Virus record (IMG/VR): IMGVR_UViG_3300003323_000950
Location: 1-64,000 of that record
DNA length: 64,000 bases
Source: a virus
Strand: one strand, 5' to 3'
The stretch's first letter is position 1; each line of letters opens with the position of its first letter. The translations under genes and the position numbers were made by a program. Under the pieces are notes generated by a model that saw nothing but the letters and a program-made list of their open reading frames with translations, did no database searches and was not told the origin of the DNA. Below, one piece after another: positions 9,412 through 57,952 of this stretch.

Positions 9412-9433
9412 TGTTATATGATGATGATTTTGG

Positions 9434-9512
9434 GTGGATGGCCGGATTCGAACCGGCATTGTCACTGCGAATACTTAAATCACAGCTCGTATTACCATTA
9501 TACGACATCCAC
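9434..9512 (-). tRNA. tRNA-like gene with an enlarged anticodon arm
   Basis: The acceptor stem GTGGATG/CATCCAC, the D-arm GTAT...ATAC and the T-arm GCCGG-TTCGAAT-CCGGC are perfect. The gene is 79 nt. The anticodon region folds as CTGTGA/TCGCAG with a 9-nt loop TTTAAGTAT, preceded by three unpaired bases and followed by a 7-nt variable region. Candidate anticodons are TAA or AAG (both Leu). The enlarged loop is unusual. Confidence 0.65.
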
Positions 9513-27122: not shown

Positions 27123-27193
27123 ACCCCAAACTTCTTAGTAATACTTAGATGTGCGAAGAAAAGTCTTACCGGTACAAATATAACATTACAACT

Positions 27194-27634
27194 ATGAAAA
27201 CATCAATCATCCTCACTCTTCTCATTATCACTCTCGGCAGCTGTATGTATTCTGGTATGGATGATGATTATACCAGTATAGATCCAAAACTGCGGCCATA
27301 TTTGAAACTATTTATTAAAGAAGCTTCAAGTCGAGGAATCTATGTTGATACCGTCAATTTGAAATTGGTTTTTGGGAAAAGTGGAAAAGAGGGAGTGACA
27401 TACTACGATACCAAAACAATAATTATTGATAGCACATCTTATTCATGGAAACATCTTCCGGAATGCCTACTCATGCATGAGTTCGGACACCTTTTTTTAT
27501 ATAGAAAACATGATGACCGACTATTGCAAAATGGCCTACCGAAATCGTTAATGACATCGAAGGCTATTCCGATTTTATATATTGAAAATAATATGGGTTA
27601 TTATTTTGATGAATTATTTACACTTCATAAGTAA
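27194..27634 (+). CDS. Zincin-type metalloprotease lipoprotein (moron)
   Basis: A 146-residue protein on the plus strand, with the ATG at 27194-27196. A lipoprotein signal (MKTSIILTLLIITLGSC, lipobox) anchors it to the envelope. The catalytic motif is HEFGH at residues 95-99, the signature of zincin metallopeptidases. The gene is visibly A/T-rich compared with its neighbours and points against them, which is typical of a transferred accessory gene. It may alter the host envelope or act on surface proteins during lysogeny or infection. Substrate is unknown. Confidence 0.78.
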   Translation: MKTSIILTLLIITLGSCMYSGMDDDYTSIDPKLRPYLKLFIKEASSRGIYVDTVNLKLVFGKSGKEGVTYYDTKTIIIDSTSYSWKHLPECLLMHEFGHLFLYRKHDDRLLQNGLPKSLMTSKAIPILYIENNMGYYFDELFTLHK

Positions 27635-51467: not shown

Positions 51468-51962
51468 ATGAAAACAGCTATCGATATTACTGGTCAAAAG
51501 TTTGGAAGGCTTACCGTTTTGAAAAGAAACGGTGAAAGCAAGAACGGCATGTCTTTATGGTTATGCGTTTGCGAATGTGGTAGGAAAATAACTACTCGAT
51601 CGAATGGATTGAGAAGCGGAAGGGCGAAAAGTTGTGGCTGTCATAGGAAAGATCGAATGAAGACATTAAATCTTGATCATGGTTTAAGAAACCATTATAT
51701 CTATAACATTTGGAGAGGCATTAAAAAGCGTTGCTATAATAAGAAACATAAAAGCTATAATGATTATGGAGGTCGTGGAATCACGATGGCTCCTGAATGG
51801 CTAGATGACATAGTGGCTTTTTATAATCATGTTGGTGAAAGGCCATCGTCAACTCATCAAATTGATAGGGAAAATAATAATGGAAATTATGTTCCAGGAA
51901 ACGTTCGATGGGTAACACCTAAAGTCAATTCAAATAATAGAAGGAAATCTAAACGGCCTTGA
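51468..51962 (+). CDS. Free-standing HNH-type homing endonuclease
   Basis: A 164-residue protein on the plus strand. A Cys-based zinc site (CVCECG at 33-38, then SCGC at 55-58) is followed by IWRGIKKRCYNKKHKSYNDYGGRGI and HQIDRENNNGNYVPGNVRW, as in the phage zinc/HNH-AP2 homing endonuclease family. The gene is A/T-rich and lies between the protease and portal genes, overlapping the portal 3' end by 14 bp. Its target is probably a nearby phage site. Confidence 0.8.
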   Translation: MKTAIDITGQKFGRLTVLKRNGESKNGMSLWLCVCECGRKITTRSNGLRSGRAKSCGCHRKDRMKTLNLDHGLRNHYIYNIWRGIKKRCYNKKHKSYNDYGGRGITMAPEWLDDIVAFYNHVGERPSSTHQIDRENNNGNYVPGNVRWVTPKVNSNNRRKSKRP

Positions 51963-56580: not shown

Positions 56581-56781
56581 GACCTTCGCATTGTGCCCAG
56601 GTGTTGGCTTTCGCTGAACCCGGGCGGATGTAGTTTAAAGTTATCAATCAATCAAACAGCATCCATATCTTAAAGGCGCACGGCAGGATTGTCTGTTTTT
56701 ACTGGACTTATACAATTTGCCAGTGCCTTACCTGCAAATGTGTCCGGCGCATTTGATCGCCGCCACGTGCGCCATTAATTT

Positions 56782-57081
56782 TTATTCAGAAACCAGCATT
56801 TCAGCCGGGTAATAAGTCAATTCGAAAATATCAGGTTTGCATGGGTAGAACTCACCTTTAACGCCTTTGATAATATAGTCTCCTGGTAGCGCTTTGTGGT
56901 CGCCTTCAAGTGTTGGGATCGTCACGCTGAAGATAGGAGCGCCTTTACCGGCTTCGTAAGCTGTATCAGACTCCAATTCAGTTTTCAGTTCTGTGCCGAC
57001 AAATCCATTTATCTCGTCGAGATTGTGACCATTGTATTGCACTGCCTCAATGGTGATAGGTTTTTTAGTATATTTTTTCAT
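56782..57081 (-). CDS. Conserved phage protein of MKKYTKKP type, 99 aa
   Basis: The start is at MKKYTKKPITIEAVQYNG. It has the recurrent phage pattern LPGDYIIKGVKGEFYPCKPDIFELTY. Proteins of this kind are very common in tailed phages; function is not known. It lies directly downstream of the structured RNA region, which could act as its leader. Confidence 0.8.
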   Translation of the reverse strand: MKKYTKKPITIEAVQYNGHNLDEINGFVGTELKTELESDTAYEAGKGAPIFSVTIPTLEGDHKALPGDYIIKGVKGEFYPCKPDIFELTYYPAEMLVSE

Positions 57082-57097
57082 AAAGTTGATTTTCAAA

Positions 57098-57578
57098 GTA
57101 AGCCGCCAGTGTTACCCGGCGGCTTTGACGGTTTTTATGGATCTTACCGACAAACCGATTTGTTTCAAAGAAACGACCTGCGTACACTCTCACTTTCAAT
57201 TTCACCCTCTTTCTATCGAAAGGCTAATTTCCTGGGCAATACTACTACAGATCGTCTTGTCCGTTTCACAGACTTTGTCCGCATGCGCTTTGGACCAGCG
57301 TTGCATGTTTACATGCTCGTCCCGGTTAGCCGGGCGACTCCCAATTTAAAGATTAGGCTCTCTTGTCTTCGGCCAGCGGAGGGCTTCAACCTCCTGTCAA
57401 CATTACACGTCTGTTTATCGACCGCCGTTTATTACAGACCTTTAACACGGCCGAATGCAAACGCCAGCATGTAACCGATGACAAACTTTCAACACGTTGC
57501 CGGCCTAGTGCCTGCGGGGCTGGGTTCATCACGCCCAGGCCCCTATGTGCCTTTTCATTTTACCAAAACCCAAAGGAC
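57098..57578 (-). ncRNA. Candidate large structured non-coding RNA (~480 nt)
   Basis: No reading frame longer than a few dozen codons makes sense here on the minus strand, but at least nine hairpins do. They include GGGGCTGGG/CCCAGGCCCC (57516-57543), GTCTGT/ACAGAC (57409-57439), GGAGG/CCTCC (57378-57394), CCCGG/CCGGG (57321-57334), GCATG/CATGC (57303-57316), GTCC/GGAC (57277-57295), GTCCG/CAGAC with a GAAA loop on the minus strand (57259-57272), CTTTC/GAAAG (57209-57222) and AGCCGCC/GGCGGCT (57101-57124). A promoter precedes it, and loops are A-rich on the minus strand. The size is in the range of phage ornate RNAs (GOLLD, ROOL), but I cannot confirm membership. Confidence 0.6.
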
Positions 57579-57583
57579 ACATT

Positions 57584-57613
57584 CAAATTTATAGCCTTCT
57601 GCTAGTTATCAAA
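57584..57613 (-). promoter_or_regulatory. Promoter of the structured RNA
   Basis: The minus strand has TTTG-N18-TAAATTTG, a near-consensus Bacteroidota promoter (spacing one less than usual). It lacks the TGTAAC palindrome of the other promoters. The expected start site is near 57578, where the hairpin-rich region begins. Confidence 0.65.
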
Positions 57614-57672
57614 AGAAGCCGATGGCATTAATTTTTATACTATATCAACTGTAAGGGTTACAAAGGGACAAA

Positions 57673-57700
57673 GCTCGGCGGGCATATACGTCGGGCTTTT
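57673..57700. terminator. Terminator-like hairpin before the structured RNA
   Basis: AAGCTCGGCG and CGTCGGGCTT pair with two mismatches, with a T-tract on the plus strand and an A-tract on the minus side. It separates the small genes at 57710-58684 from the structured RNA. Confidence 0.5.
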
Positions 57701-57709
57701 TTATTGCCC

Positions 57710-57952
57710 CTACAGTATTTGTATGCGTGACGGCTCTATGCGCCTGTGTTCATAGGCACCGCTTTCGTTCTTTTCGAACGGCTCGATGATGGCATAGGTC
57801 CTGGAGAAAATCAACCCTACAGGCTGATCTGGCGGCTCAAGATCGCTCACGTATCCGATCAGATAGGCTTTTTTAAGCTTGCCATCCTTTATATCCAGGA
57901 ACAACACGCGCACGTGGGTAATTCTGCGGAGGAATCGAAACAGTCTATTCAT
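57710..57952 (-). CDS. Hypothetical protein, 80 aa
   Basis: The start is at MNRLFRFLRRITHVRVLFLD; a longer frame is shadow-like. The middle (AYLIGYVSDLEPPDQPVGLIF) and end (SRTYAIIEPFEKNE) are beta-like. It overlaps the upstream gene by 8 bp. No family was recognised. Confidence 0.6.
   Translation of the reverse strand: MNRLFRFLRRITHVRVLFLDIKDGKLKKAYLIGYVSDLEPPDQPVGLIFSRTYAIIEPFEKNESGAYEHRRIEPSRIQIL

What the first reader, a model, noticed from the sequence alone, without database searches (positions are those of the whole stretch)
57098..57613. Large hairpin-rich non-coding RNA candidate with its own promoter
This is the only long stretch without a credible gene. At least nine strong hairpins lie in ~450 bp, with A-rich loops on the minus strand, including one GAAA loop. 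A TTTG-N18-TAAATTTG promoter ends just before the hairpins, and a terminator-like hairpin lies upstream. No group I or II intron core, tmRNA or RNase P signature was recognised. Size and phage context resemble the ornate RNAs GOLLD and ROOL (established knowledge), but the class could be new.
Basis: partly seen in the sequence, partly recalled or inferred. Interest (0 to 1): 0.82.

Follow-up and report, generated by a model that had tools for sequence, protein, structure and literature searches.

The report
Promoter-driven noncoding leader RNA, orphan
A phage of Bacteroidota-type bacteria has a convincing promoter followed by about 500 bases that do not look like protein code and fold somewhat better than chance, most likely a long regulatory leader or noncoding RNA; no relative of it was found anywhere, so nothing shows that the fold is real or that it resembles the giant RNAs GOLLD or ROOL.

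Summary
The window is part of a 75.7-kb phage record with Bacteroidota-type promoters. A perfect TTTG-N18-TAAATTTG promoter lies at 57584-57613(-). It is one of ten such sites in the window (1.5 expected by chance), all on the minus strand. Most others have their ATG within about 30 nt; this one is followed by 502 nt before the next gene. No frame has good coding statistics or a family match, although a 46-aa frame at 57065-57205 is not fully excluded. The minus strand folds better than shuffles (z about -3.2; plus strand about -1.7). Against 481-nt windows of its own genome it ranks only 50th of 471, and a segment (outside the window) that includes an apparently protein-coding 86-aa frame scores z -5. 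Only seven uninterrupted local hairpins were found, and the 'GAAA loop' is a GAA triloop. GOLLD, ROOL, HEARO, OLE and group I intron models do not match. No homologue was found in phage or plasmid records, 17 distantly related records, or IMG/VR pattern scans, so covariation cannot be tested. The RNA lacks a U-tract terminator and probably reads on into the 104-aa gene. Best reading: a long structured 5' leader, function inferred. A stand-alone new RNA class is possible but unsupported.

The parts
57584..57613 (-). Bacteroidota primary-sigma-type promoter TTTG-N18-TAAATTTG
   Evidence: exact consensus, ten such sites in the window, all on the minus strand, 1.5 expected; consensus from PMC7366714 and PMC9723704
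57098..57577 (-). predicted untranslated, hairpin-rich first ~480 nt of the transcript; start about 57577 is inferred from the promoter
   Evidence: no clear coding signal, no family match, fold z about -3.2
57516..57543 (-). hairpin GGGGCCUGGG / CCCAGCCCC
   Evidence: pair probability 0.83, but not better than shuffles when folded alone, z -0.5
57378..57394 (-). hairpin GGAGG-UUGAAGC-CCUCC
   Evidence: pair probability 0.96
57321..57334 (-). hairpin CCCGG-CUAA-CCGGG, which competes with a long-range pairing
   Evidence: the alternative is in the MEA fold
57303..57316 (-). hairpin GCAUG-UAAA-CAUGC, which competes with a long-range pairing
   Evidence: pair probability 0.94
57171..57257 (-). 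long hairpin arm, 14-pair basal stem
   Evidence: pair probability 0.94 for the base; folded alone z -1.4
57100..57125 (-). strong 10-pair hairpin 18 nt before the ATG of the next gene; tail ACUUUG, no U-tract
   Evidence: folded alone z -3.96; not among the terminator-like sites
57529..57558 (-). possible 9-codon leader frame MKRHIGAWA*, 25 nt after the promoter; its stop overlaps (UGAUG) the ATG of a 47-aa frame with non-coding codon usage
   Evidence: sequence; 47-aa frame score -13.5, below 99.9% of true coding windows
57065..57205 (-). 46-aa frame from GTG that overlaps the start of the next gene; coding status ambiguous
   Evidence: score 0.2: above 93.6% of non-coding frames, below 98.3% of coding windows; no relative
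56782..57081 (-). next gene downstream (ATG start), widespread phage protein of unknown function
   Evidence: PHROG 419, E 5.6e-32; clear coding signal
56584..56785 (-). second short noncoding, structured stretch after that gene
   Evidence: fold z -3.6 / -3.4
57651..57727 (.). inverted repeat between the upstream gene and the promoter, with the T-run on the plus strand

Best explanation
The stretch is the untranslated, structured leader of a minus-strand phage transcript. Shown from sequence: host-type RNA polymerase has a consensus promoter at 57584-57613, about 500 nt without clear coding signal follow, and then the 104-aa gene. Inferred: transcription starts near 57577, and because the hairpin at 57100-57125 has no U-tract the polymerase reads through into the 104-aa gene, the methyltransferase and perhaps the portal, capsid and tail genes. 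No further consensus promoter was found on the minus strand until 44493. The folded leader would act in cis, by setting RNA stability, access to the start codon 18 nt after the last hairpin, or premature termination. Part of it may also accumulate as a processed RNA.
For: Promoter enrichment and strand bias. Of the eleven consensus promoters in the record, eight lie 4-32 nt before an ATG, one is the distal of a tandem pair (111 nt), one lies inside a gene, and only 57584 has 502 nt to the next credible gene. No clear coding signal or protein family. Minus-strand fold z about -3.2 against -1.7 for plus. No canonical terminator at the 3' side. In the distant relative MT121964 a 502-aa frame in the terminase position directly precedes the portal, so this segment looks like an accessory insertion.
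Against: No homologue, hence no covariation and no proof that the fold is selected. The fold is only in the top 11% of the genome's own windows. A 9-codon frame in a normal start position and a 46-aa frame overlapping the next gene could mean that parts are translated. There are no expression data. A cis-regulatory action is not shown.
Confidence: 0.45

Rival explanations
1. A stand-alone phage noncoding RNA of about 480 nt that ends at the strong hairpin 57100-57125 and acts in trans or as an RNA or RNA-protein particle.
For: Own promoter, no clear coding frame, many hairpins, a strong closing hairpin with z -3.96.
Against: The end hairpin lacks a U-tract, no Rfam match, no homologue, and the structure is not exceptional for this genome.
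Confidence: 0.22
2. Ordinary intergenic DNA or decayed insert downstream of a promoter; the hairpins are within what this genome gives anyway.
For: Top 11% only among own-genome windows; a segment that includes an apparently protein-coding 86-aa frame has z -5; no conservation found.
Against: 0 of 300 shuffles fold as well; phages rarely keep 500 bp without use (general knowledge); the promoter is intact.
Confidence: 0.2
3. One or more small unrecognised proteins: a 9-codon leader, a 47-aa frame coupled by UGAUG, and a 46-aa frame overlapping the next gene.
For: First ATG 25 nt after the promoter, like the other promoters of this phage; the 46-aa frame has intermediate codon usage.
Against: The 47-aa frame scores below 99.9% of coding windows and the 46-aa frame below 98.3%; no protein relatives.
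Confidence: 0.13

Closest known systems
ROOL and GOLLD RNAs (Rfam RF03087, RF02032; PMC12286853)
   Same: Large noncoding RNA candidate encoded in a phage genome, with many hairpins
   Different: No match to either model, shorter than the 659-nt and over-800-nt examples, no nearby tRNA island, no covariation, no terminator that would define a discrete RNA
Structured phage leader RNAs such as HK022 put (PMC9378689)
   Same: Structured RNA at the 5' end of a phage transcript, before an operon
   Different: HK022 put acts in a lambdoid phage and was characterised experimentally; there is no evidence of antitermination here
Bacteroidota promoters TTTG / TAnnTTTG (PMC7366714, PMC9723704)
   Same: Same two boxes, spacing 18
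   Different: The palindrome GTAAC-N5-GTTAC that overlaps several of this phage's other promoters is absent here

Membership tests
GOLLD (RF02032) | match to the covariance model at or above the gathering score | tested here: not met
   no match at E up to 10 in the record; no match
GOLLD / ROOL | often encoded near tRNA islands in phages (PMC12286853) | tested here: not met
   only one odd tRNA call, at 9432-9512, far away
ROOL (RF03087) | match to the covariance model at or above the gathering score | tested here: not met
   no match; the control genomes gave nothing either, so sensitivity there is unverified
HEARO (RF02033) | match to the covariance model at or above the gathering score | tested here: not met
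OLE (RF01071) | match to the covariance model at or above the gathering score | tested here: not met
   no match; controls silent
Group I intron (RF00028), tmRNA, RNase P | match to the Rfam models | tested here: not met
   ARAGORN found no tmRNA
Conserved structured RNA class | homologues with compensatory base changes | tested here: inconclusive
   no homologue found, so covariation could not be counted
Bacteroidota primary-sigma promoter | TAnnTTTG with an upstream TTTG at about -33 | tested here: met
   consensus from PMC7366714 and PMC9723704
Intrinsic terminator at the 3' end | G+C-rich hairpin followed by a U-tract | tested here: not met
   hairpin 57100-57125 present, tail ACUUUG; not in the list
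Cis-regulatory leader | changes expression of the downstream gene or operon | not testable with these tools
   needs reporter or mutant assays

The most novel reading that the evidence does not exclude
A new class of large (~480 nt) structured noncoding RNA carried by a poorly sampled lineage of Bacteroidota phages, unrelated in sequence to GOLLD, ROOL or OLE.
Probability: 0.1. Interest if true: 0.65.

Novelty: new member of a known kind. Interest (0 to 1): 0.27.

Why it matters
If the transcript is real and structured, it would be a lead into RNA-based control in phages of Bacteroidota. As it stands it is a single sequence without relatives, so it mainly serves as a candidate to revisit when closer phage genomes appear.

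Tried and rejected
Homologue searches that led nowhere: blastn of the stretch against phages and plasmids, best hits about 30-40 bases at E about 0.6; single-protein scans of IMG/VR with portal, capsid, terminase and a neighbouring 154-aa protein, no relatives; portal alignment scan, 31 distant loci at 27-32% identity, and one MAG contig, none with RNA similarity; exact patterns from the RNA in IMG/VR, five hits for one 17-mer, about what chance gives, the one read in detail lying in apparent protein-coding sequence. A plus-strand RNA ending at the T-run of 57670-57706 was considered: the plus strand folds less well over 57098-57578, no TANNTTTG site lies on the plus strand between 56000 and 58800, and the record's consensus promoters are all on the minus strand, so it was set aside, although the plus-strand window 57281-57761 is itself fairly stable. 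One search with RF01998 was a mistaken accession (a group II intron model, not GOLLD). One script ended at the time limit and was repeated. Records very near this genome may be left out by the search tools, so very close relatives could have been missed.

Full report
The window lies in a virus record of 75,658 bases. Portal, capsid and tail sheath families identify a tailed phage, and its structural genes are about 30% identical to and in the same order as those of MT121964. No close relative was found: single-protein scans of IMG/VR gave none, and an alignment scan gave only loci with 27-32% identity to the portal. The promoters are of the Bacteroidota type: ten TTTG-N16-20-TANNTTTG sites against 1.48 expected, all on the minus strand. 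The consensus is that described in PMC7366714 and PMC9723704.

The promoter at 57584-57613 is exact. Across the record, eleven such promoters were compared with the next ATG frame. Eight lie 4-32 nt before a gene, one is the distal of two tandem promoters (111 nt), one lies inside a gene, and the one at 57584 is followed by 502 nt before the 104-aa gene. A 47-aa frame begins 54 nt after it, but its codon usage is lower than that of 99.9% of true coding windows. A 9-codon frame (MKRHIGAWA) starts 25 nt after the promoter and its stop overlaps the start of the 47-aa frame (sequence). A 46-aa frame (57065-57205) overlaps the next gene and has intermediate codon usage. Neither longer frame has convincing relatives. 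So most of the stretch is best read as untranslated, with small peptides not fully excluded.

Structure: the minus strand folds to -165.6 kcal/mol, z -3.1 to -3.2 against dinucleotide shuffles, the plus strand z -1.7 to -1.85. Local hairpins with at least 4 G-C pairs number 4 against 1.5 expected, reached by 9 of 300 shuffles. The A-richness of loops is not above shuffles. Against 481-nt windows of the whole record, corrected for base composition, the stretch ranks 50 of 471 on its strand. Other computed gaps have equal or stronger z-scores, one of -5.1; that segment, outside the window, includes an apparently protein-coding 86-aa frame. Several helices compete with long-range alternatives, with pair probabilities near 0.5. 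The structural signal is therefore real against shuffles but modest against the genome.

Known families: nothing at gathering thresholds in the whole record and nothing relevant at E up to 10 around the locus. Direct searches with GOLLD, ROOL, HEARO, group I intron and OLE were negative.

The 3' side: the 10-pair hairpin at 57100-57125 is strong (z -3.96) but has no U-tract. Elsewhere this phage has a canonical terminator with a run of seven T (about 68,500 of the record). Read-through into the 104-aa gene is thus likely (inference). No other consensus promoter lies on the minus strand until 44493, so this transcript may continue towards the portal and capsid genes (inference). A second short structured stretch follows the 104-aa gene (56584-56785). 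The best-supported reading is a long structured 5' leader; a stand-alone RNA, ordinary intergenic DNA and small proteins remain open.

Noticed in passing
window 56584-56785 (-): Second noncoding stretch with a fold z of about -3.5 and an 8-pair closing stem GGCGCACG/CGUGCGCC, between the 104-aa gene and a 45-aa frame.
   Followed up: partly
window 5414, 25969, 27034, 58713 and L002 12460 (-): Several promoters carry a palindrome GTAAC-N5-GTTAC that overlaps the -7 box (TTACATTTG), which could be an operator or a phage-specific promoter class.
   Followed up: partly
window 51468-51962 (+): Plus-strand 164-aa frame between portal and the next head gene that looks by eye like a phage HNH/AP2-type homing endonuclease (not matched in Pfam).
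   Followed up: partly
window 27149-27634 (+): Plus-strand 161-aa frame with a lipoprotein-like start and an HEFGH motif suggestive of a metalloprotease, opposite to the gene direction.
   Followed up: no
window 9432-9512 (-): ARAGORN reports an odd tRNA with a four-base anticodon (gatt).
   Followed up: no
record ends, G000 1-24 and 75635-75658: The first and last 24 bases of the record are identical, as in a circular or terminally redundant assembly.
   Followed up: no
L002 11800-11920 (-): Strong hairpin (GGGCGUAGG...CCUACGCCC) directly before the ATG of the 534-aa gene.
   Followed up: no
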